A DNA stretch of 64,000 nt, from positions 1 to 64,000 of the forward strand of contig JAPYMA010000752.1 in NCBI GenBank assembly GCA_035041965.1, read 5' to 3'. Of this stretch, positions 31,707-61,700 are shown in pieces. The position numbers were made by a program, and so were the translations under genes. The stretch comes from Anisakis pegreffii. Lineage: Eukaryota; Nematoda; Chromadorea; Rhabditida; Anisakidae. Below the pieces are notes generated by a model, which saw only the letters and a program-made list of their open reading frames with translations, did not search any database and was not told the DNA's origin. Each line of letters opens with the position of its first letter. Positions within the stretch are counted from its first letter, which is position 1.

Positions 31707-34700
31707 GTAAGAATTTCTTCTTATGCGACTCACCTCATATATTATTCGTTTGCAATTATTTTATCATTCGGAACGATAATTTTCATCTCTTTCGCTTAAT
31801 TCGCTCGTTATCATTCCACGAATGTCATCCAAAATATGATGAATACGTGTGAAAAGAACAAGAAACTGAGTTGAACTTTCATTCATTCATTATTCTAATT
31901 GAAACTGAAGCAGATGCGCTATTGTTTACATACAATACGTAGTGTTTGTTCCCGTTCTTAAAGTCAACATAAGGCAGACATAACTTCCATAAAGACTTTC
32001 TAAACTGATTCTTTCAACTAAAATTACTGATCAAGTCTCTGCGTTTTTTACACGCATCTGTTCAAAGAAATTCTGTGAAAAACAATAAAAAGCAGTTATC
32101 GCCAATAGTGTTCGTAGTTAGTATGAGTAATATTGAAATGAACTGAGAGTAGGAGAAACTGACTGGATGAGAAAGTAGTTGCAGAAGGATGTTTACTGAG
32201 TAGTCATTTTGAGTTACTTCATCAGTTAGCATTTGTGATCAATGTAATCCTAGAAGAGCGCATTCACTTCCCAATGGTTCACTTGCTCACCACTTCGCTC
32301 ATTTTTTGCACTACTAAAAGCCTTGCGAATACCACACTATATGAAATGATATCCTAAAATATTGAAGTCTTCATAAATTGTTCCTTTTCATTCTGAATAA
32401 ATCGACGTCTCACATCAGTTTCGATAGAATAAACATAGCTTTACTACCTTGCATCTTAGAACTCTTCATTATTAACTGTACTATGTATTCTAACCTAACA
32501 CATCTCCATTCATGGGACTTTCATCTTTTTCGGTATCAAAAATTGTCATCGACATGCTGTTCGTATTCGTAAAGCATTCTTCGCTAGACCGGATATCACT
32601 TGCAGAGTACTTCACTGAAGTTTTCTGTTAGATTTAGCACTATTACGAGCGCTCGAAAATTTAACGATTGATTTGATGCAATAAATGTCCATTATTCAAA
32701 GGAACATAAGGACAGTATGCAATAAAGGCAAAAATTAGAATAAATAATAGCAGAATATGATGCAATAAAAATAATGTTCCCAGCAGGGAAACTCGTCATT
32801 GGCATTCACGGAACTCATTTGATAACAACGTATTCAACTAAACGCATATGAATGCTTCTTTGAACGTTCAACTGATTTCGTAATCAGTACGATGATTCGA
32901 ATTTCGTGCATTGGCCATTACTAAAGGGTGACGATAATAGCGCCTCGGGGCAATTCTCGATTAGATCTTTCGAATGAGCAAATAAACATCGATAAATCAT
33001 GCCTGTTCATTTGAGCTCGCAAACCGACACGCTGACATTTTCGTGGCGACGACGAGTTTTTCGGAAATTCGTGAATAATTCTGTATGAAGATAAATTTTT
33101 TTAAAATGCATGTTGCTGTGTAAAATTCAGGAATTTTAAAGAGATTTCAAGTGTTTGATGCATTTTGTCTGACAAATTTTTTCCTCCACTAGAAAAAAAA
33201 GCATGCCATTAGTCACATTAGTGGAACAAAACTGGTGAGCTAATCAAATTAATACACCCGATTTCACAAGAAAGTAAACGGAAACGAAATCAGTCTTATT
33301 TGGAAGCATCCACCCGAATCATTCTGTACAGTGTGTGATGTAGTAGGATACTGCTAAAAGAAGCGTAATGATTCTTATGAGAAGGATGACATAGTAATTA
33401 TCGATATCGAAGAAAACTGTTGTGCTTGAAGGTGGCCAGCCAGAGGCTCGCGTACGACGAGATACAGGTGGATCGCAAAGCCTGTTGACAGTTGAATGGG
33501 AAGGAATTCAGACAGGCGATCACCCGGATGACACAGTAGGGGGATTTGCAGTAGAATATCGGGCCGAAAAGGACACTCAGTGGCATGTGCACGATGGTAT
33601 CATTCCCTACAAGGGTCCCAATCTTCAATACCGAGTTCAGGTATTCATATTCGACTTAACATCACGAATCATGATCATCTCAAATACTCGACACTATCAG
33701 GATCACTTTAAGTCAAAAAGAAGTCCCGTTACAGAGCGTGCATCTTATGCTACCTGTAATGTGAAGGAATTTTTATGAGTGGTGAACGTTTCAATTAACT
33801 AATTGAAAACCATAGTTGATTATTCTCTTCATTATCTGCTGCGATAACGCACTACAAATCTACATAAATGTCTTCATCCCCACACTTCGCTTACCTTTTC
33901 AGATTCCTCGACTTCCAACCGGAATCGCATATTTTGTAAGGATAAAGGTCCTCGGGAAAAACGGCAAAATTCTGGTTGAGACTCCAGAAATTCGAGCTCG
34001 AAACGAAATGGTCAGCATTAAGTGCGAATCAGGTTGGTTGACTAAACTTTCTTACTTTTTTTGTCTTTTTCGTGCTCATCTTCTCAGAAACGGTGCCACT
34101 GATAAGTATTCTGCCGGCACAAAGTTCCGATTCGTTATTTTTATGAGGAATGGAATGTGTAACCTAAATCGTAATTCTTCTGCTGTGTTCGGAAAGAAAT
34201 GACTTCTTGCATTATGAGTTCATTTCCTAAGGATTCTCTTGTTCACGATTAATACGCCATGCAAACGCGATTAATTTTCAGATGATTTAACTGCTCCAAG
34301 AAACGTTGAAATAACACAAACCGGTCAATATAGTGTTGCTATTTCATGGGAACCACCAGAATGTGGTTCAGTCGGTGAATATCAAATTGAAGTGAGTCAA
34401 TATAAAATTATGAAACCATCTTAAAATCGTTCAGGTGAAATGAAGCATTTATGATGGATATCTGACATTTGTTCCAGCAAAACAGCTCACAGTGCTAACT
34501 GCGAAAATGCGTTGAATTTACAGTGATAACGGAGAGTGGCATATGTTTTAAGCACTATGACTCACTCCGTACCGCATATGCACCATATCTTGAAACATCT
34601 TCGTCATTTTTATGCCTCCCAACAAAATGTTATTATATTTCAATTGTCCTCCTACGATCAAAACAAATCATTGAGAGACATGAAGTGAAAAACGAAGTGA

Positions 34701-37700
34701 GTGATAGCAGCATATGGTTCATGGCACTGAAGGATGCTTCTTTCTGGCTTGAGATTTTATCAGCCACCAGCGAACTGCTGCCCTGTGCTGCAGTAAAAAT
34801 AAAGTGGAAGAATAAAAATAAAAATTCAAGGGAACATGTTCATTTTTTAGCACATTCACTTCGTACAAGATGTGGAATCATCTCTGTAGAAAATTTGTTC
34901 CTTTGAAATGATTTCCATACAAAATTCGTCTTTCACTGCAAGCGACTGAAATTTGAATTCTAATCGTGAATTATAAACTACATGAGATGAGAAGGATACG
35001 AATTAAATCTACACAAAAAACCATCTCATATGCATCACAGACAAGCTGAACAAATGAAAAACTCATTGAAAACCCAAAGCCAAGTCATGATTATGATGCA
35101 AAAGTAATATTTCAGCAAGATCGCCGTTTTCGTTAGAAGCACACGATTCTCCTCAGAGTTGATGGTCATTGTAGTAAACACACCCAACAACTACAGAAAC
35201 TATAATTAAGATGGCATTATCTGATGAAATGGAAGCAACGCAGTATCATGCTTAACTGAATGAGTGCATTTTCAGTTATCTGGAATAGAGACTAAATTTG
35301 ATGTGCATCGACAAACGGTAACACATCCATCGGTGAGTGTGACCAACCTATTACCAGGAACCGACTATCAGGTACGTGTTCGCGCTGCTGACCGCTCACG
35401 CAATCTCGGTCCCTGGAACGAACATACGACTGTTGCCACAACTCAAGGACGAGGTACTATCCCTCATCTTTCATTAACATTCCTAAAATCCCGAACTCCT
35501 CATTAACATATTGGCTTGTTTGAGCAACAGTAAAAACTTCGACAAAACCAATTGAATTTCGAAAATACACCCAAAAATTTTCATTCCAATTGCGCTACAT
35601 TTGCATTCATTGTTCCTATGACTATTGTTAACATCATTTGCTGTGCTTTCAAATAATGCCGTAATTCAGCACCTGATGTATCATCGAACGTTGAAACCGA
35701 TTATCGTACGGATACACAACTACGAATTCATTGGCCACATTACGAAGACGAACGATTACAATTTTATGAAGTGGGAATCAATTGTTCATGTTTTTGCATC
35801 ATTTTGAGGGCAACGATCACAATGCTGCACAGCTATCTACCATTCGCTTCATAATCTCACGTTCATCTCTGAACCTACTTACGTGATTTCACTGTTACGT
35901 CAACAAGACCTTCACTAAACAAAACGCATAAAAACGACACATTATTTTTGGTATTGAGCATTGAGGAGAAGACGAATATTGAACGATTTTAGAGATAATG
36001 TGCTGTGTAAATATTTAACACAGAGATTAAAAGCCACTTCTGCACTCATTCGTTGATCAGCAAAACTGAGAATTGAGAGTTGTATAAGTGTAAAGGGGTT
36101 AATAGATGAAATGTCTGTTGCGTCATTAAAACGTCAATATATATCACGGAGGTAAAAATAACGTTTTTTTAAGGTGATGGCAGTTGAAGTAAACAGCGAG
36201 GGCCGTTCCGTGGAGCGTGCTCGAGTATCACCGTTAATAAATTCACATGCATTCGCAGGTCTTCGTCCCAATACCGAATACTTGATCGGTGTCGTGGCGT
36301 TCGTTGATCATGAACCCAAATATGTTTACAAGCATTCAGCGAACACCATCGCGAAGACAGCGATCGAATGGCACGATAAGCCAGCTATAACGAGAGAAAG
36401 TGCCAATCATTATTTGATACGGTGGACTAAGCCTGAGACAAGTCAAATCATCGACAACTTCATCGTTGAGTGTCGTCTTCCTAATGAGACTGAGTCGGTG
36501 ACATTAAGTGATCATTCGATTTTTTACTTATGAATGACACCTAATGAAACTATGCTTGATCGACTGGCTGCAAAAAATTGCTCACAAATAGCTGAAACAT
36601 TAATTTGCCAATTACCTGACAACTAAGCGTCCAGTAATGAAAAGATGAAATCGTCATGACCCAACTCATAATCAAAAGGTTTAAAAAGCGATTCTAGTGT
36701 TTTCGGTAGTGATCTTCTGACTGAACATGTTGGATTTGAAAATGTTACTGCAAATATAGATGTGAGCAATATAGCTTGATCTTGGCATATTCCTTCATCG
36801 TGAATCATTAAAATATCACCCATCATCTAGTCATTACTCATTTTTATTTGTTTTACCATCATTCATCAATGAATTGAAAAATCACTTGAATATGGTCAAG
36901 AAATAATTGATAAATAAGAGTATAAATTGATCGAGTGATAGGTTTTGGATAATTTCGGAATACTTCTAGATGGAGGAAATATGGTGACGTACCTGTTGAT
37001 GAAGATACCTTTGAATATCAGATGGCTGTCGATACAATCGGTGATATGTCGTACTATTCATTGCGCGTTATCGCTGTTGATGAACAAAAGAATCTCATTA
37101 CCAAAACACCTGAAGTTTGTTTTGTTTGTTCTTGATACGAACAGAGCAACTTTCAAGCGTTTTGCATACCTTCCTTCTGTCGAAAAAAATGATGCCTAGT
37201 TAACAATCCAATATTTAACGATGTTACATAGGAGCAAAATAAAATGCTCCGTATCATTCGCCCCGTTCAGAAAAATTTTGTTCGTCATAAAATTTCGTCA
37301 TAAAATTACATAAAAGTACAGATTGCTGTTGGATCAGCATCTTTGGACGCATGTTCGGGTGAGGCTGGCATACCTCAAGATGTGCGTGCAGGGTTTGTTT
37401 CCGAGAGCACCATTCAATACACTTGGGAAAAGCCACATTGCGATGAAAGTTACGGACCTATCGACGGTTATGAATATGTGGTATAGTTTTTTGACCCGTT
37501 ACAGTCAAACCACGTATTGCATGACATTAAATATCGCTAATGCTGCTCAATTGCAATTCCTTCACCTAACAAGATCAGTCCTGCATTTCTCGAGAATCAT
37601 CTAGTCTCCACACCTCACCAAATTACGAATTTCATCTTTGTAGCTATTATCTTTTTACACAGTAACGTGATAACACAACAACATTCACTTTAACAGATCG

Positions 37701-40700
37701 GAATGATTTGCAGTTATGGAATGTAGAATCAGATAAACAACCAGAAGGTGCCTCTTACGTCGGTCGTAATGCAGTTGCAGCGAATGATCTTGAACCAGAT
37801 ACTCGATTTGCATTTCGCGTTAGATCTCGTTCAGGGCATGGACACAGTCCATGGAGTGACGTCGTGCACGCATCGACGAAACCACATTCCGCTATAGTTG
37901 GTATGTGAGAACAAACTCGATATGGGCACTCATTCAGAACACTTCCACATAACCCTCACAATTTCTTACGTTTTACAAACACTATTCCCAATCATCACCC
38001 TTAATCTCTCGTTATGTTATCATCACTTATCAGTTCATTAGCTTCATTAGCTTCCCCTCGATAGTTGACCGCTTGAGACTGAACCCTAGACCGGTGACAC
38101 TTTTCAACGCAGTGAGAGATTGTCTCTAAAGATCGAATTCTTGAAAATTGGAAACTAGCCTTTCCTTGAAAATGAGGTGGTTTACTTGAATACTTCGAAA
38201 ATGTTATCTTATTTGATGGGCACTTTTATTTTATGAATTACGTCCTGATTACATTTTAAAAAATAATATTGATGATTGATACCTTCGAAATGTTACAGTG
38301 CTGAACGCATTTCGAAGAAACAATAATAACGGGTTGAGAAACTAACTTCCGTTCATCCATAGAAGCCGATATATTGCAAATTCAATAATTTCTCGCCCAC
38401 TTTTGTTTCATATATTACGTTCTATTTTTATTTGAATGCACACCCCACGACAAAATGCTGAATATTTAGCACTACGTTCTGTTCATAATTCAAACATCTT
38501 TGAAGCTCAGTACCCGGACAATCTGCTTAAAGACGTTTGCCTAAGAACTGTTTGCCTAACGGACAGTTTGCCTAACGGACAATTTGTCTATTAGGCAAAA
38601 TATCCATTAAAAAACTGTCTGTTAGGCAATGAGGCAATCTATGCTTAGGCAAAACATCTTTAGGCAGATTGTTCGGTCACGATGAAGCTCATCATACTCC
38701 CAAAGCATTAAAATCCACAATTTTGAATGAACTTTCCAGCCATGCTCATTACCTCCCATATCTCCTTGAATCTGCTGTTCACTTTTGTCATGTGTGTTTT
38801 AATGTCAACTTTCGAGTGCACTCATTATCAGTTGATTCAGGGAGATATCATGCTATTTATTGTGTTGTCTAATTACAAATCACCTAACAAAAGGGTACTA
38901 ACCAACCAAATACGAACCAAATGCACCTTTCTTCTTTTACACACTAACATTCAGAAGATGGTGGATGGTTATCACTAATCTCACCGCAAATCAGCACCTC
39001 ACTCATGTCTGCATCAAATCGGAGAGTGAAACGACAAGCTAAATCCAAGATCACAGGTAATTTTGGTATAGTCTGCGGCAGTTGAATCTCCTCTCATCAA
39101 ACAGTTTAAAACACATTGCCAAATCACGCTGTCACTTTTCGAATTGCAATTTTGTGCAGCCTCACAACTTAGAGTACATTTTTGTCAGCTATGAAAACTG
39201 AGCTGTGCAACGAAACTCAAGTATTTTCATTTCAAAAACCTAATTGATACTTTATTCGGTGTGTAGATTTATAAAGAAATTTCTGTAATCATTCAAAACC
39301 ACACTGCAAAAATCGTAATATATTCATTCGTAAATTCCGAAGCATTATGTTGCTTTACGACGAACCCTTAACCAAATGAATTCGAAACGTGTATGGAATT
39401 TATTGAATTTGTTTATGACAGTTGGACTCGTGCTTCGTCACTATTTATCCACACTATGATGAATAATACTCTTCATCCGAAATTCAGCAATTTCACTCGT
39501 TCACCGTATTGAATCAATCTGGTTGTGAGATAGATCATTGATTGTGTTGCACTTTTACTTCACCCCATTGTATCAGCTTTAATTGATCGGATTTTCAGAC
39601 GATCGCAATATTTATCAGTTACGAATCGTTTTGGCACCACCAAAATCCTACCTTGTTTGGACACCACTACCAGAACATGCAAACGATATACTGGTATTCG
39701 AGTGAGTTCTTTTTTTCCGGAATGTAATAATCAATTCTTTTCTACGATCGCCTTGCAAGAGATCAGAGTATTCCCGGAGAAAAAGTACTGTTTAGAGGAG
39801 TAATGCGGATTAAATTTGTTCAGTTCGGATTGGTATAAGGAAACGTCAATGAAATTGCAGATTGTCTTACAAGAAGAGTGCGACCGGTAATTGGACTCGC
39901 ATCACTGAACCGACCCAGTCTTTTGAATGTCCAAACGGTGTCGCTGACGACGAAGATTATTGCTATGATTTGTCGAAATTTTCGTATGGTGTTCAGTACA
40001 CTGCTGATGTAATAGCATCATCTTTGTTCTCACTCTCATTTACCAATCAGTCATTCTCCAATTTATATTTCGAAATTGACAACGAAATAATCGAAAATAT
40101 CTCATAACATCGAGGGATACCTTAACGAAAAAATTTGATTTGAACGATTCGTCATAATTTTAAACGAGCGATTTTTTGTGATCAAACAAACATTTTGAAA
40201 ACATTATTGACATTGAATAGTTATGGACGAATTATGGGAAATAAATAATCAACATCAGTTTGTTAACCTATTTAATTTCTTGAAAATCTCATAGAATATT
40301 TTTTATTGAATAACTTCATATGATCATTGCATTGCAGCTGACCTATCAATTACGCTCTGGTGATTGGGCACCTCATGGAAATCCACTTTTCTTCATTTTA
40401 GTTGAAGCTGGTAACGTCGTTTTTTGGCATCTGATTTTGCATTATCAACTCATTGTACATCACTTTGTTTCGTTCCGTTCCTGTGCACGTTTTTAATTGT
40501 TCGCGCACTTATCTCGTCATGATTGTTCGTCCTATTAATTTTTGTATCGATTTCAACAGAAGTAGGTACAGACACATTTCTGTGAATAGGCGTCATCTCT
40601 GAACGATTGATTGCGCTCCATCCGAGTTTCATCGCGAAATGAACAACTCCTGCTGGATGAAAGAACTGATTTATGGCTTGTAGTCATGCGAATACCACAA

Positions 40701-43700
40701 AATGCACAACTCACCCCAGCAATTTGTTCGTATGCATTTCAGGTGAACCATCCGTACCATCAGCACCAAACAATTTACAAATCAGTCCTCGTGATGCATC
40801 CAGTGTCGAGTTGCGTTGGTTACCACCACTCAGCTCGGTGCACATCCCCTTCTATGAGGCACGCATCTTGTTCATTCTTCCGTCACCTTTTCCTATCTTC
40901 AACATTTTATCATTCCCTAAAAGGATACCTCTGTAATGTTCCCTTTCTATATTGAACCCTTTCGTATGCTCTGTACCTTTGTCCGCTCACTGACTATTCG
41001 TTTCGGATACTTTTGACAGACTCAAGCGAAAATTGCTAACCTTGAGAATACATCAGAAAAATTTGTGCGAATTTGAGGTTACATGCAGATAGCACAACAG
41101 TTTGATTTATTGACGGTGTCAAGCCAAATATTCTCACTTGTCTAGATTTATACGTACCTTTTATCACAGGCAAGTACATAATTAAAATAATCATCAATTA
41201 GTTTTTGTTACTTATTGACAAGCATGCAGAGGCAAACAACTGAAAACTGAGGATTACCCAGAAGCTGAACGCAACCTTCTCCGAACAATGGACGAGTGGT
41301 TGTCGGATTAGAAATGAACGAAAGCGAATGCATTTGATGGTGTTAAAATGATTCAGATTACAATCGAAGATATGCATTCGGGTACGAAACGTACCGAGAA
41401 GGTACCGGGTAGTTATTTTGCGCATATCGTTTCGCAGTTATCCCCGTATTCGTCGTACAATATCTCAGTTAGAGCCGTTACGGAACCGGGTGCATATGGG
41501 GATCTGGCATGGACGATTGTCTCATTGCAACGATACATTGATGGTGTAAAGCCAGAGGCGCCTCAACAAACCCATCGCATATCCCAACAAGAGCAATTAC
41601 AACCTCCAGCTGTTCAGTGCGAATCTGCTACGCCAACCACTCCGTGCACACCACGTAAGCTGCTTCCCTCCTAAATGCCCCTCCAATTATTCATCCTTCT
41701 GACTTTCTGAAATCAAGAACTCTTCCTCCGTAAACCCTCTGCAAGTCCTTCATTTTCCTGATGGAAGCCTCAGAAATTTCAACCCTATTCAGCTTTTCCT
41801 TGCTTATGACTCTGTTTGTCTTTCGCTTTGTTTCGATCGATTACGCCTTCTTGCATAGCTTCTTTCTTGATTTCATAGAACCCACTTTTTAAAGAGCCCA
41901 TTGGTCGGAGAGTATCACACAAGAATGCATCGACTTTGAATTTTGAGTTTGAATCGTCTTCGATCATACAGCAATAAAAATTGTCAATACGACATCTACG
42001 ATCATATTTGATTCTATCTGGTGAATAAGATTCACTGTCGACTGAGTGGTTGTTGCATGAGATTCAATCAAAGCATGGAATTGAATGAATGAATACGAGA
42101 TAATATCACAAAGCACTGCATGGTATATAGTTGGATGAAACTAAGCATCTCGTTCAGATTAACTAAAATTACGTTCAGATATCTTATGATATGAACTGCT
42201 TTTCAAGAAAATTTCAAATCTTCTATCACAACTCAGTTGCGAGATTGAACGACTTCTGGCTACAACGTATCGCGATGCGAAGAATTTGTCTTCACGTATT
42301 TAATAACTTCAAATAATACTATAGAGTAATAATTTCAAAATTGTAGTAGCTCGTGCACATCCCTCGTTAGGCATCGATCAACCGCGTATAGAACAACATG
42401 GTTCTCGAACTGTTCTTAATTGGAACGTTGGTGGTGATACCTCCAATGTTGTTGCGTATCAGGTAACGTACCATTCTTGCATACAACTGCTTTGATGTAT
42501 GCTAGTGTTGTGCGAGGAGAGAATAAAAAAGTTGGGGACGGGCAAAGTACCCGAAAATGGCCGCCGCTCGAAAATGGTCGAGGACGGGGACCCCGAATTC
42601 GGAGACTCCCCGCACAACACCGATGTATGCCTTTTACCCCGAATCAGTGAAGACCATTCACTGTTAAATTAGCTTCGTTCCAGTTGTAACATTGAGTTTG
42701 TTATTTTGCTACCAAAGAAGCAACTTATAAGTTAATAAAATCAGAACAACTCTTAATAAATTTCGTGGTTAGTATGTGGAGGTTGTGACTTAATTATGGC
42801 GAAGTGACAGTTACTTGTTCTGTAGATTGAACTTCGTTCGGAGTCTGATCGCGATTGGCGACAGCACGGAGGTTACGTGATGCATGTTCCCTCCGAGCGA
42901 CAGTTCCGTCAGGAATTGACTGATCTCAAGACGAATGGCCGTTATTTCGTGCGTGTTCTTGCTCTTGACCGAGCCACAAGACGTCAACTTGCCGTCTCAC
43001 CAGTTACCAGTTTCAGTGTGCAATGTCAAGGTATATTGCTCTACCTTATAACCAAATAAAGCGCTCCTTCAATCAGTTAAAGTTCATATAATCACCTAAT
43101 TCCATTAAGATGAATAACAATAAATGTAACAATTCCCACAAATTCAGCGTTGAATTTAAGAAGATTGACTCAAAGGCTAACAACAAGATTAAATGATAAT
43201 GTAATGAACAGCAAAATGAAGTGATGAATGATTTCAGTACCAAGTAAGCCACCAGAGAATGTGCAGCTAGAAGAGATGCTACCAGATGCTGTTCTATTGA
43301 GCTGGACGTACAGCAGCGAGGATGGTTCAGAATGCGTCCCACATTTCGTAATAACAGGATATCAAAATGGAGTTGCATTCAATCAAAAAGTGGATGGTCG
43401 AGTACGTGAATACCGTTTCGAGAATCCAGTTGGCGGCGAATGGCAAGCTGAAATCAGAGCTGGCAATGCGGCTGGCATGGGTCCGTCGAGTTCAATTGCC
43501 AAACTTCAAACTCAGCAACAAGGTTCGCTCAATGATATGTTTGAGATTCACAGATTATTTGAAAGGTTCTACCGAATGTTGTTTATTTATTGCAGATCTC
43601 ACTTTCACTGTTGTTAACAAACAGTTCTACCATTCTCGTGTGATTGATTCCACAACACAGATCTCATTTAATAAGTTTGAAACTGAATTCAATCTTTATT

Positions 43701-49700: not shown

Positions 49701-52700
49701 TGAAATTCAGTAATTATTTTGAATTAGTATCGTTCAATTCTAATCATTTCAAATTCCATTACTCTTTCAATTCCATATCGAACCTTGGATGCAAGACACA
49801 TCAAGCACACTTTCAGGCGAACCAGTATCGCAGGAATTACAAACAGATCAGTCCGTGCCCAGTGCAGCACCACTCTATATTCGTGTCGAAAATCCACTCC
49901 CGACCGAAGTTGATCTTAGCTGGCAAGCACCCCCATGCTTACAGACGAACGGAGAACTCACTGAATATGAATACGAGATAAGACACGTTGATGGGGATGC
50001 GCAGGTTCCGCTACGTACAGATACGATACATGGAACAAGAGCTAAAATTGTTGGGTTAAGTCCATTCACGCGGTACACAATTCGAATGAGAGCGTTCACT
50101 CGCAAAGGACCAGGACCTTGGTCGCAGCACGTCCACTTTCAAACTGCTGCGGCACCACAGGTATTCAAACCTTCATCTCACTATTCCACCAACCGTTTTT
50201 GAAATCCGGTTGCTTCCTATCCGCAGAGAGAACTGCAAAAATTGTTGCATATTGCGATTGAATTACTCGAATACGATGAAGTGATATTATTATAGTTATG
50301 CTTAGCATAATGTGTATGATATTATTTAAGCAGAACTGTTTCTGCTCTATTTAAAATGATTCCATCGTTGACAGAAAGTCTTGATATTCATTGTGTATGT
50401 TTGGACAACTTGAATTTGATGTGCATTTGCTAGTTGCATTCCAGATCGAACCACCGCCAATGGTTCAAGTGATCAGTACTGGTGCTGATACTGCGCATTT
50501 GGTATGGCAACAACCAAGAGGTTATGTTGATAAATACAAGTGTCAATATGCTATTGTTGGTACACAAAAATATCAGGAACGAGTATTCCCGGCAAATAAT
50601 CCATGCGAACAACAGATTAGCATTGAAAGATTACCAGTATCCGTACCGCAAGGATCTCGCTTGCACTGTGGACGTATCGATGGTTTACAACCCGAAAGAG
50701 AGTACGACTTCAGGGTTTGTTCATCATCTCATCTTTTCCATCCAATCCTTTTATTCACTGTAAACCATTGGTCAGCACGCTTCAAAACAAAGGAACGGTT
50801 CCGACCATGATCGTTAATTTTGTTGAACTTCGTTACTCTTTTGACTATATTCACGACCGGGAGTTGTGTCGACGACAGCTTAATGATCCATCTTCTCGTT
50901 CAGGTTTCGGCTGGTGGTCCAAACGGTCACTGGTCACCGTGGAGTGAATCACAGCGAGGCCATATCACTCAAGGCCCCGTCCAAGTTGGTTCCGTTTCAA
51001 GGATCAGCAGCTCGTCGAATAGTCTTCATATTGGATGGATTGTAAATCCGGCTGACGCGGCGCGTGTCACTGAATATCGCATCTATGTCACACCATTGGG
51101 ACGTGGAGCTAGGCCTCAAACATTTTCAGTGGATCGTTCAACAACACAATATCGTGTTGACAATTTATCGCCAAACACTCTCTACAATATCACCGTTCTA
51201 GCAGCCACCGGTTCGAGACTGCATGCCGGAACGAGCGTTGAAATGAAAACGGATAGTGCTCCTTTGCAGGGCATTCTTTCAGCACCTCGAGTTCTTCTTG
51301 AACAACCAACAGCAGTTAAACTCGAGTGGGATGCACCAGCAGGTACCGTCAGCGGTTTCATCGTTGAGTACCGATTAGGTGATCAATCTTGGCAACAGTA
51401 TGGCACACGCGTTCCTGCGTATCCGGGTAGGCGGACCTACATGGCAGTTGTCGACCAGGTTATTTGATTTTATTTAACCAATCACAAATGTAAATGGTGT
51501 ACTGAACAGTGTAGTACACCATCTACATTTGTGCACGAATATGCATGAAACTGATTGCTTGCTTCCACTCTGAAACGATATGGAGTAATGCCGCCATTTT
51601 TAACTCTTTCCATACATGAAACTTTGATATTACCAGCAGCACTTGATTTCTGAATTGTACGATTCAGTTGAAATATTGTGCGATTACTTCGAAGTATCGG
51701 CTAATAAAGAGTGAATTGTTTTCAGCTACCAACAAACAATGTTGTCGATCTTCGAGTACGTGCCGTATCTGTGCAGAATGAGCAGTCCCCACCCAGTCCT
51801 GAGGTTCGCGCAAGAACCAAGTGTTTAGCTCCCTCACAACCGCCTCAAGGTGTTCGTTTGGATGCACCTTCAACAAACGAAGTTCGAGTATCATGGGCCA
51901 GACCTGGTAAAGATACATGGCAATGTGATCAGTTGAATTTCGATATTGCTTATCGTGTGAGCAATCAACCAGAACGTGTGATACCCGTGCCTGGTGACCA
52001 AACGGAGTACGTATTCTCGGCTGAACCAAATTCACGATGGGCCATCAAATTGCGTTCCAGCAATCAAGTGGGATCGAGTCCATGGAGTTCAGAGCAAACA
52101 ATAATGACACGACAGGGAACGCCTGGAGTAGTGCGTGACTTGAGACTTCGAGCTAGAGGACCTAATGAAGTGCATGTTCAGTGGTCACCACCACTCGTAC
52201 AACGCGGCACGATTGTTGGTTATGATATCAGTTACCGTCTTAAACATCGTCTCGCATGTCCAAATGAAGAGCCGCGCGATGTGAGTCGTGATTTCATCAC
52301 TGTTTATAATCACAAAGATTTGGAGTATACGCTTACGGGTTTACTACCTTTCTCACTGTATGAAGTTCGGGTCAGAGCACGAACTACTGAGTTGGGACCC
52401 GAGGAAACAAGAGAGATCGCTACTGAACAGCAACCACCAAGTTCACCTCCACTTAATCTTCAAACCGGATACGCTCTTGAGCGTTCCATTAATTTCCAGT
52501 GGGAACCAGTTGATTGCTCTCAAAGACATGGTCATATCACAAGTTATGAATATGAGATACTTGGACAAGATGACTGGGCTAAATTAGAGCGACAAATAGC
52601 GAATACAACTGATAATAAGGTGACAATTGACGGACTCACACCATTCACTAAATATGTGATGCGTGTTAAAGCATTTAATAGTATTGGTGGTGGACCAAAC

Positions 52701-55700
52701 ACCGAGAACTTGGATGCAATGACTGCAAAGGCTGATGCACCTTTACCACCGCAAGATTTGGTTGTTGCACTGGAGGGAACCGATTTCTTCATGGTGTCGT
52801 GGCTACCTCCATACCCACCGTATGGACCACACGATGGTTATAGACTTCGATATCAGCTACTGAAGGGTGACACATGGAAGGTGATTGAGAAGAACGTAAA
52901 AGATCCAGCATTAGAATGCCCTCTTGAAAGTCCTCGTTATTGCTTCAATGTGACCGGACTCGAGAACGGTCAGCAATATCGTGTTCAGGTAGCGACACAT
53001 ATTGAAGGTGGCTCATATGGACCTTGGTGCAGTCCAATAATCGCCAACACCCTTCAAGTAATGCCAGATGCTCCAAGAGCGATTGAATTGATCGATAAAA
53101 CAGACCATTCACTGCACATCAGATGGTTACCTCCATTAGATCCAATGGGGTATATAACACAATACAGATTGAGTATTGTATCCATGGAAGATCCACGCGA
53201 TCATGTCAAAACATACCTAGTTGATCATCCAACGCTCACATACCTCTTCGAGCATCTGCAACCCGAAACGTCCTATAACGTCAGCATCTCAGCCGGTACT
53301 AAGCGGGGATTCGGTCCAGTAATCTGGACACGTTATTCGACTGACCCATTCAAGTTGCCCGCTGTATCACAAGCACCACAAGTTACACCAGACGGTATCA
53401 ATGGACTGGATGTGCAATGGAATGGCCTGATGGATCCAAAGAATAGAATACGTGGTTATGTCGTTGAGGTTCGTCCCAGTGATAATCCAACGTTCACAGA
53501 ATATGGGGGTATCGTGAACCATGATTCCGTGAAACGAATTTATCATTCGAAATTGGCGAATCTTGATGCAGATACTCTGTACTTTGTTCGAATCAAAGCT
53601 GTCGACAAGAAACAACGTGTCAGTGAGCCGAGCCCAGAAGGACGAGGAAGAACGGGATGTGCAGGTTGGTAAATTCTTGAAGCTACATTTTCAGACGGCT
53701 ACGTTTAGACAATATCTTGATTTTGAGAAATTCTCGGAAAATTTTTTTTTCAAAACTTCTCGGCTAGATTTTTTCATTCCCAATATCAAGTAAAGAGAAA
53801 TTACCTGAATTAGTGATAATGGTGATAATAGAGAGGCATAAACTCGTAATGAGTTGGATTCGTTGATTAAACACATAAATGGACTTGAATCAATTCGTCC
53901 ACCATCAAGAACTACACGACAACACCACGACAGTGAAATTATGTTTTAGCCCCACGATCACCACCATCCAATGTGAATGCGCAATCGCCATCATCAACAC
54001 AAGTTCGTGTCAACTGGCTTGCCCCAGTTCAAAGTTCATGGCTTTGTTCGAATATCAAATACAAAATCGAATACCAAAACGGTACTGCACCAAGAAAACA
54101 GATTGATCTACCAAGGTATTCATTCGCATCGTTTTCTTTTTCACAATAGATTTTAAACATGGTCTTATCGGCTATTATCATAATGAAAGAATTAATGAAT
54201 TGAATATGAAATTTTTCTGCATGAATTAAATATGAAATTCTAATAATAAAGGATAAAAGTTGCAGCGGAACAACTGAACAAGTTCTCGACTCAGCTCCAA
54301 ACACGATTTGGCGTGTGCGCGTTCGTGTTGAGAATGAGGCTGGTGCTTCGGACTGGAGTAAAGAAGTATCGGTAACAACCGGCGAAGGTGCACCAGGTCC
54401 CATCGGTGACTTGGATGCCAGAGCAACCGGTCCGAATGCAGCGATTGTGACATGGAGAGCACCGGTTCAACCGAATGGTCAAATAACCGGCTATACGGTG
54501 GTATATCAACTGAAATCAAGAGGTGAATGCGGTCCTCGTACATCGCAACCGATCACGAAGCACGTTCGTGGTGAAAAACTCACACTTGATGATCTTCTGC
54601 CAGACTCCACGTACGAAATTCATGTTGTCGCACATACCTCACAAACCGGACCTCAATCCGAAACGGTCACATTGACTACTGAAGAAGCACGTAAGTCATC
54701 TGAATATTCCTCGTTCTTCTATTGAGATCGCGAATTTACGACAATACTTCTTTTCACTAATACATTTTTTTGATCGATAGTTCAGTGATAAAGGTGTGAT
54801 TACATTCATACAAGTTACCAAAACGAGCATTGACCTTATCAGTTTAAGGCATCTTCACATAGTTGCGAAATCGAATTGTGATCCGCATTATTATCATAGA
54901 TTATCTAAATATTAGGATGAGAACGTAGTAATTCACGGCGTTCATATTCCGAAAGGAAAATAATTAAGCGCGATGTTTATGTCTGCAAAGGTTTGCAAAA
55001 TTTCTGTCTCGCAAGCGATTGCATTGAACGTATTTCAGCACCGACCGGACCACCACAGCACGTTCACATGAGTTCAGTGACACAGACTCGAGGAGATCTG
55101 TTATGGAATGAACCGGATTGTGAAGCAAGGAATGGCAAAATAATGGAATATGATTATCAGCTGGAAAGTATCGATAAATGGGATGAAAACCGTGTGGATC
55201 ATAGCATTGCTCGACGCGTTTCGTTCGATCAATTGGTGCCTTATACCAGGTATCGAGCTCGAGTTCGAGCCACTAACTCCAAAGGTGAAGGACCTTACTC
55301 GGAATGGACTTCATTCCAAACACTACCTGCATGTGAGTTGAATTCACTGCTCCACTTTCACTTTGAAGCAATGAACATGTCAGTTGTAATGTATGTGATT
55401 CACCTTCAACTGTGTTCAAGCGTTCAATTCTGTTTCTCCATCCAACTTTGCGATGACATTCAGTTTCGATTACTTTGATAAAATAGCAAAATTGTTCGCG
55501 AGATAGTTTTTGTTTTTAGAGGTAGAAAAATTTCGCATGAAGTATTTGTTGCATATATCTGCGATGGACCGAATCATATCATCTGGTTTATTTTGTTGCA
55601 GCACCACCACAGCCTTCTGATCTCAACGAAGAACGATCATTCCCGCATGCCATCGAAATATCATTCCTACCTCCTTCACCACCACATGGAGTGATCAATG

Positions 55701-58700
55701 AGTATCGTATACGACAGACACCATCTGGACAGGTTCATATCTTCATTTTCTTCTGAATGCATCTTCATCTGCCGTAATGTCTGACTTGATTCAACAACTT
55801 CTGTTTCCCGGGATTATCATATCTTGAAAGTTTCTTGTGGTCTACAAATCAAAAAATGAACGTGACGAATTGACCAATATTTTGGATGCTTCCAGCATTC
55901 ATTTCGCTGCTTTTGTTGACTATTAGTCATTTGCAATGAAATTCTGTAATTTCAAGTTGAACTACAAAGAAGTTCGCGCACCAGCAGCCAGAATGGAGTG
56001 TTCAGATGCGACCAAACGAGACCGAAAGTGCTATCGAGTAGCTAATCTTGAACCAGAACAGGAATATGAGATACAAGTGGCTGGGCATACTGATGGAGGT
56101 GGTTGGGGCGAATGGAGCGAACCGTTGAATGCACAAACTCATGAACAAAGTGAGAGAATTCGTTATATTACCAATGAATTCGTTATTTTTCATCGAATCT
56201 TGTTTTTATTAACTACAAGACTTACTGATGTAACGAGCGTTGATGAATTCATCAAAACTGAAACCAATTCTAGACTTGGAAGGATTGAGAATCTTTCAAA
56301 GTCAGAATTCGTCGTAATCATTTCCTAATGAATATCTTCCACTGATTGATTCGTTTTGAATTTGATGACAGTTGGGCATAATGTAATGAAACGCATCAAA
56401 TTTGTTTGTAGATATTCCTGTTCTCGAAAGACAGTTGCAAGTGGTCGACACAAAACCAACAAGCATCACTGTTAAGTGGCAAGGCCTAGATCCAGAGCAG
56501 GTATTGTTTTGAATACGAGCATGTTTCATTCTGATATAGTTCGATATCTCACACTTTTCATTCTGAATATTGTTCGATGCATTTGCTTGTGTTTAGCTCC
56601 TTTGTCAGAAATGATAGATTGAACGTGTATTGCCATTGCATAGATTTTCGAATATTTGTGCATCAATCAAATATTGCAACAGTCGTTGTGATTGCATTGA
56701 AGAACGCCGATAGGAAGGCATAATTAACTGTTCCCATATTCCTTTGACTACAGGCAGCGCACGTTGTTGGATATATACTGGAATATAAATCTGAGAATGA
56801 GGCTGACGACTGGCAAGAATATAATGGCATAACGAGACATCGATCTCGACAGAACGAATACAAGGTTCAAGTTCGTGGTCTCGAAGAAGCAACCGAATAC
56901 TTCTTCCGTTTGAAAGTGATTGGTAAGAACGATAAAAGAGGCGAACCTGGACCTGAGGTCAAAGCTGTGACCAACTGTGGACGTAAGCCCTTTTTTCATT
57001 CGCCTGATCTTTTCAGAGCGATCACTGAAAATATGAGATATTCGGTGAAATTGTCTAGTAGTGCAATTAAATCATGAATGGTCGTCTATTAGAAAGAACG
57101 CTTCATGGTTTAAGAAGACTACACATATGGTAATAGCAAAAGAGAATATGATCGGAAGACCATAAAATTCAGAGCACGAAATGGACGTCTAATGCTAGAT
57201 TCTAGTATGACGAATGCAACGTGCTTGCGATCTTGAGGCACTTCATACAATGTGATTGTCGTTCATGATTAATCATGATTTTTTCTATACTTATGTTTCT
57301 TTCTACATCTATGATCAACATTTACGACTTATGCACTATGATCTGGAATCAGCAGTTATTCGTTATTTTATGTGACATATAGTTTTCAAGATTAACCGTT
57401 GAATTTTTAACCATTGTAAATTGTAAGCCCACCGAAATTGCAAGGATGATAGATGAAATCAATGAAATAACATTCCAGGACCAGAAGAGCCTCCAGCAGA
57501 TGTGAAGTTGGAATCAGTTGACTTCGAGACGATCAAATTGTCATGGAAGAATCCAAATGAAGAGTCATGGAAATGCGATGAGATTGAATACGTTATTGAT
57601 TTTGTGAACACAACATCTCGTGGAGTAATGAGTGTTCCACTCGATTCACCTGAAGAATTGCTCCTTTCAACACTACCTGGAACGAAGTGGCAAATTCGAA
57701 TGCGTACACAAACTGTTGAAGATGGCCAGAAGCCGCATTATAGTGCATGGAGTGATCGTATTTCGCTGATAACCCAAGCACTCCCTGGTGAATTATTCGT
57801 CAAAGTTGAGCCAAAGAGTCCACAGTCTGCAACAGTGATTTGGGATTTAGCGGATGAAGATCAAAAATGGAATTACGGCGTTGATATAACTTATAAATTG
57901 AAGCAGTTAGGTGGCTGCACTGATACGCAAAGTACTGATCACGAACCCATAACAAGATACAATGTTCAAGATAAACAAATCCTTATCGAAGATCTGAAAC
58001 CTGGTTCTGAATATGAAGTCATTGTGACACCACGTAAACCACCAACGCTGCACTCATCAATTGAAGCACCAAAAACCGTTCGTCGCTTCCGTACAAAGTC
58101 AGACGTACCAGGTGGAGCACCAACAAACTTGCGGAGTGATTCTCGTAAAGATACTGAAATCGGTTTCAAATGGGACGCACCTTTGTGTGAGGATCAGAAC
58201 GGGAAAATAACACAATACGAATATCAAGTGAGTGGTATTGAGGAATGGAATGAAGGACAACGTGAAGGAGTTACGCCAAGAACGAATACGGTTGTTGATC
58301 AGTTGAAACCAGGCTCGCTTTATAATGTTCGTGTTCGTGCGTATACTAAGGAAGGTTCTGGACCATGGTCAGAAACCATACAAATTCGTACGACTGGCTC
58401 CGAGTTAGGTGCACCACGCGAACTGACAGCCGTTCAAACGAAGGCGAAATCAATTCAACTCACTTGGTTACCACCTTATCCAGAACGAGCGCAGGTTGTT
58501 GCTTATAAGATCCGTCACAGTCCACGCGCTGACGATTCGAATCCGGTGGAAGTTGAGCTATCGGGTGATGATCTGAGCTGTTCGGGATTCAGGAGTCCGT
58601 TGATAACGAGCGAGAATTTGTGTGGAACTGCAGTGGGGCTTCATCCGGACACGACGTACAGATTTGCTGTTCGGGTTAGAATCTTTCGATATTTTGAACA

Positions 58701-61700
58701 GTTTACAATTATGTCCATCAGAATTCACTTGATTCCATTAATATGAAGCGAATTATTTTGCAACGCAAAAACGAACGCTCTTGTTAGCAAAAATTAGCAC
58801 CATGCTTGAATGGTCGTCGTTCAGGCTCAATCGACAAATGGTAACTGGGGTGACTGGTCTCCATCTTACTTCGCAACAACGCGAACAGTTGACGATGGTC
58901 CTATACCTGGTAAACTACGATTGGTTTCCGCAGGGCATGATAATCTCCGAGTGAACTGGACTGTACCGCCAGTTATTCGAGATCTAATCGATGAATATTT
59001 GGTAAGTATTGCCGTGATTGTTGTGTTCAATTGCACAAATTTGCGAAGTAGCGTACTTTGCACTCAAGCACGAAAGCCTATCTTGAGATGAAGTCAGGTG
59101 TCCTTCATAAGTGCTACTTGGTACATATTCTGAGTTTAGAACATAAGTATTACAGGTGAACATTTCATTGGCAAGCTCGCTCGATCAGCATCCACATGAG
59201 TTCAGAACGCCCGGTTCACAAACTGATTATCATTTCCACGGATTGGATCCGATTACTCATTATAATATCACTGTACAAGGTCTTTCTGAAGGCAAACGGC
59301 TTTGGTTCATCTCAGAAGTATTCGCAACCACAGATTTCGGTACGTGATCTGAATAAGAAGCTCAAGCATTCACGTCTTTGAGAACTGGAAGACATTAATG
59401 CGTTTTACTTTATACGGCAAACTGATCAATGTTGCGATCAAAAATTTATTTGAATAGTTCATATGAACCGATTTGATTTGTAGCGGAGGGACTGCTGTCG
59501 TGGTTACCGTCACCAACCGATTTGAAATTACTCGAAAAATCTGATACAATGATGCACGTTGCGTGGAGCCCACCAGAAATATTCGATCCACAATATAAAG
59601 ATCTCATTACTCATTATCGTGTATGTTTGCACTTATTCTACTTGTAATATAAGATAACTTTGTGGTTTCTTCAACTCTAGATGTGCTAAACAAGTATTCT
59701 TTATTTTAAAGAACGTGGAAGGGCAGATCATTCTACTGTTTTCCTCATTCTTTATTCAATCTACATGCTTTATTCGTTTCCTGACAAACGGATATCGATT
59801 TTATCACGACAAATAATTCTTGAAGGAACGCTCGGCCTGTTCGTTTCCACCAGATGGAAATAAAGACTGAGCGTTGAATCCATCTTTTCGTTCTGGAGTT
59901 TTCAGCGCAAAGGAGTCCAACTTTTGTGCATCTTTCAGGTAACAATAGCTCCGTTCGATGCCATTCGAGGTAAAACTGGTCGGCCAAAGAACTACACTGT
60001 GCCATACCCAGGAAGTTCGATAAGATTTGAAGACCTAAGACCGGATACGATCTATAATGTCACTGTACAAGCGGGTACCGATAGTGGTTATGGACAGGTA
60101 TTGTGGGGTACATACAGTACACTAGCACCTGGTCAAAGTCATATATTGAAGCTTGTATATCGTACACCAACCACATTGACCGTTGACTGGGAGCCAGTAT
60201 GGCCAACTGATAGGGGATATGTGGTAAGTTTAATTCAAATGAATTGGACGATTGCAAAAATTTTTTTGGAGGGAGATGCTCATGCATACTTCATTTCTGC
60301 ATGTTGCATCTTCACCAAATTGATCGATTCTTATTTCTTAAATCGAATCCCAATCATGTTTTATCTATCCCATTTCTCAGTTGATTATTGCGATTACACA
60401 AGAATTTTGCATTCAGCTAACGTGGAAATCACTTCATTCCACGAATCCGTTCACTCGTCTCAACGTCATCAGATCAGCACAACTCGATGGTACCGCAACA
60501 AATTACACCATCCGAAATCTCGAACCATCAACTGTCTATAACGTAACACTACAACCACGCGGCATAGCTGATATGGCATATGGCGTATATGCAACACTAC
60601 CGCCAGGATGGTTTGTAGTACGTAACTTGGTGTACTGCGATCGAACGAATTATGCTGTGTCGCTGAACTGGGAACCAATCGATTTGGATATGGCAACACA
60701 TTATCAGACCAGATATTTACGTCTCAAAGAGCATGACGCTGTCTGGAATGAGGAACAACCACAAAGAGCTGTTGAACTGCTGTGTCCAAAAGATGGTTGC
60801 AATCGAAATTGTTACTTAGTTTACAATCTTGAACATAATCCTGCTGAATACGTGTTTCAAGTGAGAGCAAAAGTGAGTAACACTTCCACATCTACTCTGA
60901 ACTTCGCGAAATTTTCGCACATTTTCCATTCGTTACAACATAATGTCCGAAAAAATACCGTCAAAACAGTTATTTTTTGGTGCTAAACAAGAGATTCATT
61001 GTGGAAGTTCAACAAAATCAGTCCTGAACTTGTTTTGAATGAAATCAAAACCAGCGAATATTTCACCTCATCAAAGAAGAGATTAAGCAAGAAAGATTAC
61101 TGAACGTGTATATTTGATTGAAATTCACACCAATAATCATGCTGATGGCTTTGTTTTGAATCGAGTTAGCACTCAGGTGAACAATCAATGGAACCATTGG
61201 AAAACGGCTGGTAAGCCAAGTGTTGTTGATAAGTTTGATCGGAAGAAGGGATGCTGTATTGTTCCTCCACCGTATATCGTTGAACACATCGGCGCACCGG
61301 GTACATTCTGGGAAGTGGACATTGCTCCGGTAGAGTCACGACCGAAGAACATCTCGTGAGCACAGCATTTCTGTATTCAATTCGTTACTTCTCATCAAAA
61401 AATGCAACAGCAATCATATTGACTGAATCCAAAAGTCCATCGGGGACTAGTAGCACTCATTTTTCAGACAAAATGAAATGGATTCCTTCGTCTGGCTGAT
61501 GTTGAAGACAGAATGCACTGAAGCAGAGGAATCAATACAATATTTCCTCTGTTTCACTCTGTCATTTTGTTGTCAGCGCAGTTACCTTTCCGATACTTAT
61601 TCTAGAGCACATTAGATGTATGAAAAGTATGAACTAGTAATTTGACAGAGTTTTGGTTATTTCTTTCATCAATTCGGTAATAACATTTTGTCAAACAAAT

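What the first reader, a model, noticed from the sequence alone, without database searches (positions are those of the whole stretch)
33413..60872. Six-domain FN3 super-repeat (A-F), duplicated and rearranged
Seen: FN3 domains fall into six recurring types by their own landmarks, such as W-x-C-D in A, G-Y-x-I-x-Y in B, Y-E-Y-E-I in C, a Cys pair in D, Y-N-x-[TS]-V in E and a W-[RQ]-x-Y/H-G stretch in F. The order reads F,A,E,F,C,D,E,F,A | F,A,F,A,B,C,D,E,F | A,B,C,D,E,F | A,B,C,D,F | A,B,C,D,E,E,E,D. Inference: the ectodomain of about 4,000 residues grew by duplicating a unit of about 600 residues, then lost or copied single domains. RPTPs known to me have at most about 20 FN3 domains without such higher-order periodicity.
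Basis: partly seen in the sequence, partly recalled or inferred. Interest (0 to 1): 0.8.

Follow-up and report, generated by a model that had tools for sequence, protein, structure and literature searches.

The report
Nematode myotactin with six-domain super-repeat
This gene encodes a nematode's version of myotactin (LET-805), a giant protein that anchors skin to the underlying matrix; its outer part is built from six kinds of domain repeated in a fixed order, and its cysteines suggest that some neighbouring domains are stapled together in pairs.

Summary
A spliced model (31640-75965 of contig C549, running past the window) gives about 4,740 residues with 38 FN3-like domains. Similarity peaks at lag 6 (0 of 20,000 order permutations) and at an offset of 605 residues. 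The protein is not a phosphatase but the orthologue of C. elegans LET-805/myotactin, already credited with 36 FN3 repeats. All 38 slots are at least 68% filled in Trichinella and Trichuris, so the layout predates their split from the other nematodes sampled. Apparently new is a cysteine grammar: each F or B has one conserved cysteine towards the next domain, each A or C one in its BC loop, D an internal pair, E none; 36 of 36 junctions obey, including all 9 that break the cycle. This suggests F-A, F-C and B-C disulfide staples; the published suppressor change C1424R would break one. An echinoderm receptor phosphatase shows a like cysteine chain and A-B-C order, hinting at descent from such a receptor; trees do not settle it. 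Bonds and ancestry are inferred.

The parts
31640..31706 (+). exon 1: start codon and signal peptide MRAVSAALLVAPLFLLFISSIQ
   Evidence: gene model; start chosen by eye from the hydrophobic leader
33437..34286 (+). d01, type F (spans introns)
   Evidence: terminal Cys 32/32 orthologues
   Evidence: best profile partners d32, d15, d27, d5, d21, all C; Cys 33/33
35672..36362 (+). d03, type E
   Evidence: single-sequence best hit is a C domain
36363..37363 (+). d04, type F (weak, divergent; one weak donor at 36493)
   Evidence: terminal Cys 33/33
37364..37900 (+). d05, type C
   Evidence: Cys 32/32
39599..40410 (+). d06, type D, added by hand to the HMM list
   Evidence: profile best partners d22, d28, d16; Cys pair 31/31 and 31/31
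40743..41654 (+). d07, type E, with long tail; more than half filled in 14 of 35 orthologue models
   Evidence: not in the Parascaris model
42361..43242 (+). d08, type F
   Evidence: terminal Cys 32/33
43243..43515 (+). d09, type A
   Evidence: Cys 34/34; the only position not monophyletic in the tree
44692..45869 (+). two exons (44692-44817, 45789-45869) coding a Cys-containing insert between d09 and d10
   Evidence: match 72 residues present in Parascaris P0001
46885..47684 (+). d10, type F
   Evidence: terminal Cys 34/34; repeat 9 of PMC5887144 by my mapping
47685..47963 (+). d11, type A
   Evidence: Cys 34/34
47964..48518 (+). d12, type F
   Evidence: terminal Cys 35/35
48519..49046 (+). 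d13, type A
   Evidence: Cys 35/35
49131..49860 (+). d14, type B
   Evidence: Cys 35/35 (a second Cys is peculiar to the window, 0/35)
49861..50160 (+). d15, type C; carries the Cys that I match to C. elegans C1424
   Evidence: Cys 35/35
50445..50975 (+). d16, type D with a long insert
   Evidence: Cys pair 35/35 and 35/35 plus a third Cys 32/35
50976..51266 (+). d17, type E
   Evidence: no Cys
51267..51833 (+). d18, type F
   Evidence: terminal Cys 34/34
51834..52121 (+). d19, type A (start of the full unit A-F lying in one exon)
   Evidence: Cys 35/35
52122..52439 (+). d20, type B
   Evidence: Cys 35/35; mean identity 82% to orthologues
52440..52739 (+). d21, type C
   Evidence: Cys 34/34; mean identity 82%
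52740..53063 (+). d22, type D
   Evidence: Cys pair 34/34 and 35/35 (a third is peculiar to the window, 0/35)
53064..53357 (+). d23, type E
   Evidence: no Cys
53358..53954 (+). d24, type F
   Evidence: terminal Cys 35/35
53955..54392 (+). d25, type A
   Evidence: Cys 34/34
54393..55043 (+). d26, type B
   Evidence: Cys 35/35
55044..55334 (+). d27, type C
   Evidence: Cys 34/35
55604..56416 (+). d28, type D
   Evidence: Cys pair 35/35 and 35/35
56417..57483 (+). d29, type F (E is missing between d28 and d29)
   Evidence: terminal Cys 35/35
57484..57780 (+). d30, type A
   Evidence: Cys 35/35
57781..58110 (+). d31, type B
   Evidence: Cys 35/35
58111..58404 (+). d32, type C
   Evidence: Cys 35/35
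58405..58896 (+). d33, type D
   Evidence: Cys pair 35/35 and 33/33
58897..59503 (+). d34, type E
   Evidence: no Cys
59504..60127 (+). d35, type E
   Evidence: no Cys
60128..60608 (+). d36, type E
   Evidence: no Cys
60609..61251 (+). d37, type D (divergent)
   Evidence: four Cys: 35/35, 33/33, 34/35, 34/35; single-sequence best hit is a C domain
61252..62684 (+). d38, membrane-proximal FN3-like domain resembling that of RPTPs
   Evidence: weak Fn3_PTPRU match, 22 bits under a 24.7 cut-off; over the cut-off (26.3) in Pristionchus P0023

Best explanation
The locus is the LET-805/myotactin gene of an ascaridomorph-like nematode. Its product is a single-pass epidermal membrane protein with about 38 FN3-like domains outside, one membrane span and a tail without a recognised domain inside. 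By homology with C. elegans it sits at fibrous organelles and ties the epidermis to the basement membrane over muscle. The ectodomain arose by tandem duplication of a six-domain unit A-B-C-D-E-F before the split of the Trichinella/Trichuris lineage from the other nematodes sampled, and was then trimmed and padded. I propose that the unit survives because it is a mechanical module: F is disulfide-bonded to the next domain (A or C) and B to the next C, D is locked internally, and E is the cysteine-free spacer that is copied or lost freely. Shown: orthology, the six types, the periodicity, the age, the cysteine pattern. Inferred: the bonds themselves, stiffness, load bearing.
For: Orthology: Parascaris homologue of 4473 residues, 85% identical over 100% of the query part, and 43 nematode homologues at 39-85%; the C. 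briggsae protein shows the same kind of leader, ectodomain, membrane span and tail; all 37 hits to the C-terminal 774 residues of the Parascaris protein are nematode, among 1441 candidates scored. Function of LET-805: PMC5887144 (passages). Types and period. Age: 36 of 37 positions form one clade across window, C. briggsae, Plectus, Trichinella and Trichuris, so far as each has the domain; all 38 slots at least 68% filled in Trichinella P0038 and Trichuris P0040. Cysteine grammar: conservation per domain in 35 orthologues longer than 3600 residues, of 43; 36 of 36 junctions obey donor (F, B) before acceptor (A, C), 9 of 9 non-cyclic ones included, chance about 0.0013 if those nine are independent and 0.012 for their six kinds; 0 of 200,000 label shuffles obey everywhere. 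Topology: in the AlphaFold model of Onchocerca P0092 the F cysteine follows strand G, the B cysteine follows strand C (CC' loop), and the A and C cysteines lie between strands B and C, which by the known FN3 topology (recalled) puts donor and acceptor at facing poles. [quoted passage not shown] I map it to the d15 acceptor cysteine, the only Cys between 1329 and 1521 in C. briggsae.
Against: d16 has a third conserved cysteine (32/35) without a partner in the scheme. By my mapping the published suppressor alleles fall in d10+d11 (F-A) but also in d15+d16 (C-D), which is not a stapled pair, and C1424 is the only let-805 residue named in the passages that I saw. Increased clustering was measured in ju1123, which carries a second missense change, not in ju1386. 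The donor-acceptor rule is partly implied by the cyclic order, so only the nine non-cyclic junctions test it independently, and some may share one event. With foreign FN3 domains in the tree, types B, D and E are not single splits. Function in this species is carried over from C. elegans.
Confidence: 0.65

Rival explanations
1. The gene is a receptor tyrosine phosphatase whose phosphatase domain lies beyond the window.
For: The membrane-proximal domain resembles Fn3_PTPRU, and several database entries for orthologues carry phosphatase names (Trichinella and Soboliphyme PTPRQ, Dirofilaria RPTP F, Rhabditophanes).
Against: No PF00102 match on C549 among 132 matches (150 of 157 candidates scored); the tail has no Pfam match; none of the 43 nematode homologues lists PF00102.
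Confidence: 0.02
2. The conserved cysteines act singly: they are free, buried, or bond between molecules (oligomerisation), not between neighbouring domains.
For: LET-805::GFP clusters more in ju1123, which carries C1424R and one more change, and in two other suppressor alleles; this fits exposure of a reactive cysteine or a changed intermolecular contact as well as a broken staple.
Against: Donor and acceptor are always adjacent and equal in number and lie in loops of facing poles; an echinoderm RPTP has 13 successive junctions with a like arrangement.
Confidence: 0.25
3. The six types are functional convergence of domains in like surroundings, not descent by block duplication.
For: The types differ by few landmark residues, the fold is small, and with foreign FN3 domains added the tree keeps only C and F (or A, C and F with Cys masked) as single splits.
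Against: Type partners survive masking of C and W (33 of 37), each type is one split in the tree of 183 nematode domains, and type D shares a phase-0 intron in what I judge to be strand F in 4 of 6 copies (d06, d16, d33, d37), not seen in another type.
Confidence: 0.05
4. The ectodomain descends from an RPTP that lost its phosphatase; the A-B-C order and the cysteine chain are inherited from it.
For: Amphiura RPTP P0047 (two PF00102 stretches) reads E/F-like, A, then B-C six times by the nematode type HMMs (C up to 84.5 bits against 28.5 for the next type; B up to 63.2; A 27.1 against 11.5), with a terminal Cys after the first domain and a leading and a BC-loop Cys at 13 successive junctions; 12 of these 13 A/B/C calls hold when Cys is masked; its membrane-proximal domain is the only hit to the d38 HMM with E under 0.01 among 48 non-myotactin proteins (E 1.8e-4, 13.8 bits).
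Against: In trees with other FN3 proteins Amphiura C groups with nematode C at only 0.78, together with one A and one sidekick domain (0.60 with Cys masked, with the sidekick domain), and Amphiura B and A do not group with nematode B and A. The first domain scores E 23.5, F 21.2: undecided. One species, one protein.
Confidence: 0.35

Closest known systems
LET-805 / myotactin of C. elegans
   Same: Orthologue: leader, FN3 ectodomain, single span, tail without known domain. The 36 repeats of the paper equal d01-d37 without d07, which the C. briggsae protein lacks in my tree set; that would explain the one-step shift in numbering (inference).
   Different: d07 is present here, in Plectus, Trichinella and Trichuris; a six-type order or a cysteine grammar is not mentioned in the passages that I read.
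Titin A-band super-repeats
   Same: A higher-order arrangement of domains repeated along a giant chain (listing and abstract starts).
   Different: Muscle, Ig plus FN3 (abstract starts); relation beyond FN3 was not tested.
Receptor tyrosine phosphatases with long FN3 arrays (PTPRQ; Amphiura RPTP F-like P0047)
   Same: FN3 arrays with lag-2 or lag-3 order; P0047 shares A-B-C calls, BC-loop cysteines and a PTPRU-like membrane-proximal domain.
   Different: They carry phosphatase domains; no six-type cycle was found.
Sidekick
   Same: PMC5887144 calls LET-805 distantly related to Sidekick; the Trichuris orthologue is named sidekick; one sidekick-like domain joins the C types in a tree.
   Different: A Trichinella sidekick-like protein does not read in A-F order (1 cyclic junction of 12).

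Membership tests
LET-805 / myotactin | collinear sequence similarity over the whole protein to nematode myotactin | tested here: met
   85% to Parascaris, 60% to C. briggsae over 4,341 aligned residues. C. elegans LET-805 itself was not compared; C. briggsae stood in.
LET-805 / myotactin | ectodomain of FN3 repeats, single transmembrane span, no catalytic tail | tested here: met
   one non-FN3 insert lies between d09 and d10
LET-805 / myotactin | basal epidermal location at fibrous organelles and attachment function | not testable with these tools
   known for C. elegans (PMC5887144, passages)
receptor tyrosine phosphatase | one or two PF00102 domains after the membrane span | tested here: not met
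receptor tyrosine phosphatase | RPTP-type membrane-proximal FN3 domain | tested here: inconclusive
   PF23144 at 22 bits, below the 24.7 cut-off, in this protein; 26.3 in Pristionchus
six-type FN3 super-repeat | same-type domains cluster across units and period of six | tested here: met
   with foreign FN3 domains added only C and F (or A, C, F) stay single splits
inter-domain disulfide staples | bond between the donor cysteine and the next domain's BC-loop cysteine | not testable with these tools
   adjacency, equal number and loop position only

The most novel reading that the evidence does not exclude
Myotactin is a phosphatase-less descendant of an RPTP whose ectodomain is a disulfide-stapled chain: F-A, F-C and B-C pairs are rigid rods, and only rearrangements that keep every one of these cysteines matched have survived over the history of the nematodes. 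The published suppressor change C1424R then acts by opening one staple.
Probability: 0.25. Interest if true: 0.75.

Novelty: new variant of a known kind. Interest (0 to 1): 0.55.

Why it matters
Loss of let-805 is lethal in C. elegans embryos, and its ligand and way of working are unknown (PMC5887144, passages). A domain grammar kept since before the Trichinella/Trichuris lineage branched off gives numbered, testable modules: it predicts which domain pairs are rigid, which spacers can be removed, and why a Cys-to-Arg change acts as a gain of function. It also warns that nematode myotactins are being annotated as phosphatases (PTPRQ, RPTP F) or sidekick.

Tried and rejected
Rejected: RPTP identity. 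Rejected: that the published suppressor pairs are the same types in two units; by my mapping they are F+A (d10, d11) and C+D (d15, d16). Rejected as a relative of note: P0044, the best hit after the 43 nematode proteins, an unnamed low-complexity FN3 array that looks bacterial to me. Rejected: that super-repeat order is unusual among FN3 proteins. Of nine control arrays four had a family-wise p under 0.01 (frog PTPRQ of Hyla, sponge PTPRQ-like, Amphiura RPTP, lancelet tenascin-X-like), two lay between 0.01 and 0.02 (PTPRQ of Ranitomeya 0.0108, zebrafish tenascin 0.0168) and three did not reach 0.05 (usherins of Nematostella 0.127 and Ascaphus 0.64, fibronectin of Gouania 0.091). My stricter models dropped exons 44692-44817 and 45789-45869 and I took them for junk; the Parascaris protein showed them to be real. 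Order of types A-F in other FN3 proteins: of 13 non-orthologues only Amphiura P0047 had more cyclic junctions than shuffles; four of the 13 (tenascin-X-like, fibronectin, tenascin, P0045) got one label nearly throughout, so the test says nothing for them; the positive control, Trichinella myotactin, was read with one F missing. PDB sequence search with d20-d21 gave 19 sequences: RPTP F, delta and S, contactins, titin and neogenin; the fold search gave titin, ROS1, contactin, cytokine receptors and RPTPs at the top: FN3, nothing more specific. Paper searches on inter-domain disulfides in FN3 arrays found 0 papers (each requiring all its terms). Super-repeat with fibronectin type III: 14 papers, all on titin or muscle by title and abstract start. 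Searches (19 of 19 listed; 20 of 84 listed; 10 of 64 listed) on myotactin were seen as listings only, apart from PMC5887144, of which I saw passages. Hresko et al. 1999, the original myotactin paper (cited there), and the supplement of PMC5887144 were not read, so an earlier description of the repeat order cannot be excluded.


Full report
What the locus is. The window is the first 64,000 bases of contig C549 (103,584 bases) of a 122.7-Mb assembly. I built a spliced model with a small home-made gene finder, FN3 profile hints and hand curation, then corrected it with the Parascaris protein. It runs from 31640 to 75965, has 58 exons, gives 4,740 residues, and continues past the window. Weak points: the first intron, the donor at 36493, the join 40837/41357 inside d07, the exon 38955-39056 (absent from the Parascaris model) and several tail exons that differ from Parascaris. 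The closest homologues are Parascaris and Toxocara (85% identity each), so the worm is probably an ascaridomorph (inference); its species was not identified.

Not a phosphatase. PF00102 has 132 matches in the assembly, none on C549 (150 of 157 first-look candidates were scored). The tail has no Pfam match. The 43 best database hits are all nematode by their names, 39-85% identical, and none lists PF00102, although several are named PTPRQ, RPTP F, protein-tyrosine-phosphatase or sidekick. The C-terminal 774 residues of the Parascaris protein hit 37 proteins, all nematode, within the tool's length limits and among the 1441 candidates that it scored. The C. briggsae sequence shows the same kind of leader, membrane span and tail. 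PMC5887144 (passages read) describes LET-805/myotactin as a single-pass epidermal protein at fibrous organelles, with an ectodomain of FN3 repeats only (32 annotated plus 4), a small disordered intracellular domain, and no conservation outside nematodes.

The six types. I aligned the window protein with the 43 orthologues, cut out each domain (profiles of 14 to 44 sequences) and compared all 38 profiles with HHalign (703 comparisons). The best partner is of the same type for 37 of 37 domains: F = 1,4,8,10,12,18,24,29; C = 2,5,15,21,27,32; E = 3,7,17,23,34,35,36; D = 6,16,22,28,33,37; A = 9,11,13,19,25,30; B = 14,20,26,31. d38 stands alone. I assigned the labels from this matrix, so that count is partly circular; the tree and the single-sequence test below are not. 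The order is FCEFCDEFAFAFABCDEFABCDEFABCDFABCDEEED. 27 of 36 junctions follow the cycle A-B-C-D-E-F-A, against a mean of 6.2 and a maximum of 17 in 20,000 shuffles. At lag 6 the mean score is 63.1 against 39.3 (sd 4.8), and no permutation reaches it; taking the raw maximum over all 24 lags, 324 of 20,000 permutations reach 63.1, because long lags are noisy. With the window's own letters only, z is 4.88 and family-wise p 0.0002; the three misses are d03, d16 and d37. The same analysis, with domains cut through the alignment, gives lag 6 as top lag in C. briggsae, Plectus, Strongyloides, Trichinella and Trichuris (5 of 5; z 4.1-5.4), with 35 of 36, 37 of 37, 33 of 35, 37 of 37 and 37 of 37 best partners of the same type. 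The self-comparison without any domain cutting peaks at offset 605, then 1229 and 514.

Age. All 38 slots are at least 68% filled in Trichinella P0038 and Trichuris P0040. Across 35 orthologues longer than 3600 residues, 37 slots are more than half filled in 31 to 35; d07 in only 14. In a FastTree of 183 domains from window, C. briggsae, Plectus, Trichinella and Trichuris, each type is one split (support 0.785 to 1.0) and 36 of 37 positions unite the species that have them; d09 does not. The duplications therefore came before the split between Trichinella/Trichuris and the other nematodes sampled. Type D copies d06, d16, d33 and d37 share a phase-0 intron in what I judge to be strand F, not seen in other types; phase-0 introns in strand C occur in C (d02, d05), in E (d03, d34, d35, d36) and near there in d08, so they do not mark a type.

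Controls against my own reading. Order in FN3 arrays is not special to this protein: frog PTPRQ (26 FN3, lag 2, z 4.8), sponge PTPRQ-like (28, lag 3, z 4.6), Amphiura RPTP (16, lag 2, z 4.3) and a lancelet tenascin-X-like protein (36, lag 2, z 6.4) also show it; a second frog PTPRQ (p 0.011) and a tenascin (p 0.017) are intermediate; two usherins and a fibronectin do not (nine arrays). In a second tree, with three nematodes and five foreign FN3 proteins besides Amphiura (193 tips), only C and F remain single splits, or A, C and F with Cys masked; B, D and E mix with each other or with foreign domains. The types are thus firm within myotactin but not all of them are set off from other FN3 domains.

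Cysteine grammar. In the 35 longer orthologues (gapped rows left out of each denominator) the terminal cysteine of F is kept in 32/32, 33/33, 32/33, 34/34, 35/35, 34/34, 35/35 and 35/35; the BC-loop cysteine of the twelve A and C domains in all rows (32/32 to 35/35) except d27, 34/35; the single conserved cysteine of B in 35/35 four times; D has a conserved pair in each of six copies; E has none, except a tail cysteine in d07 (4/6). Hence every F or B is followed by an A or C, and every A or C is preceded by an F or B: 36 of 36 junctions. Nine junctions break the cycle (FC twice, AF twice, EE twice, CE, DF, ED) and all nine obey; a random non-cyclic junction would obey with probability 0.477, so 0.0013 for nine or 0.012 for six kinds. 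Cysteines that the scheme does not use: a third in d16 (32/35), four in d37 in place of two, two in d38, those of the insert between d09 and d10, and three found in the window only (in d04, d14 and d22; 0 in orthologues). In the AlphaFold model of Onchocerca P0092 (1012 residues, mean pLDDT 81.6, pTM 0.30, 20 sequences) the F cysteine (403) follows strand G, that of A (437) and of C (634) lie between strands B and C, and that of B (548) follows strand C. By the established FN3 topology (recalled) these are facing poles of neighbours. Distances could not be measured.

Link to genetics. The 36 repeats of the paper equal d01-d37 without d07 in number, and C. briggsae has no d07 in the tree set. 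Its repeats 9+10 and 14+15 are then d10+d11 (F-A) and d15+d16 (C-D). This agrees with the unusual sequence that the paper reports between repeats 8 and 9 (the d09-d10 insert) and in the middle of repeat 15 (the d16 insert). The one let-805 residue named in the passages, C1424R, fits C. briggsae C1410, the d15 acceptor cysteine; the neighbouring cysteines are at 1329 and 1521. [quoted passage not shown] increased clustering of LET-805::GFP was measured in ju1123, which has a second missense change, and in two further alleles. My reading, an inference: C1424R opens the d14-d15 staple.

Possible origin. Scored with HMMs of the six types, the echinoderm protein P0047 (RPTP F-like, two PF00102 stretches and a PF23144 match) reads E/F-like (23.5 and 21.2 bits), A, then B-C six times, then two unclear domains; each of the 13 junctions from the first domain to the last C has one cysteine on the leading side and one in the BC loop of the next, by sequence position. 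12 of the 13 A/B/C calls hold with cysteines masked; one B becomes E. The d38 HMM finds its membrane-proximal domain (E 1.8e-4) and nothing else under 0.01 among 48 non-myotactin proteins. Trees do not settle it: Amphiura C joins nematode C at 0.78, with one A and one sidekick domain (0.60 masked, with the sidekick domain); A and B do not join their namesakes. Of 13 non-orthologue arrays only P0047 shows the order, four being uninformative. I hold RPTP descent at about one in three.

Verdict. The protein is a known family, super-repeats with FN3 are a known kind, and the six-type cycle with its cysteine grammar appears to be a new variant; the listings (19 and 60 shown in part) gave no description of it, but the original 1999 paper was not read.

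Noticed in passing
window 40743-41654: Domain d07 (type E) is present here, in Plectus, Trichinella and Trichuris but not more than half filled in 21 of 35 long orthologue models, Parascaris and C. briggsae among those without it: lineage losses, alternative splicing or annotation gaps.
   Followed up: partly
window 44692-45869: A cysteine-containing insert of about 70 residues, not FN3 as far as I see, sits between d09 and d10 in an otherwise FN3 ectodomain; it is also in Parascaris.
   Followed up: partly
window 38955-39056: Predicted exon with a furin-like RVKRQ stretch between d05 and d06, absent from the Parascaris model; another RVRR stretch lies at the start of d01.
   Followed up: no
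L009 5597-6197 (C549:69597-70197): The cytoplasmic tail has four copies of a short motif (GYVRGFRDA, GYVKGLRDA, GYMQGFRDG, GYIEGFKEG), also recognisable in C. briggsae; function unknown.
   Followed up: no
G000:C555:117789-139103 (minus strand): Another large FN3 array with paired FN3 and regular gaps, in the style of twitchin (Fn-Fn-Ig, recalled); identity not tested (rows).
   Followed up: no
P0038, P0039, P0040, P0041, P0043: Public entries for nematode myotactin are named PTPRQ, RPTP F or sidekick although they list no phosphatase domain.
   Followed up: partly
window 62684 to L009 3177 (C549:62684-67177): A 4.5-kb intron in my model separates the membrane-proximal domain from the transmembrane exon.
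   Followed up: no
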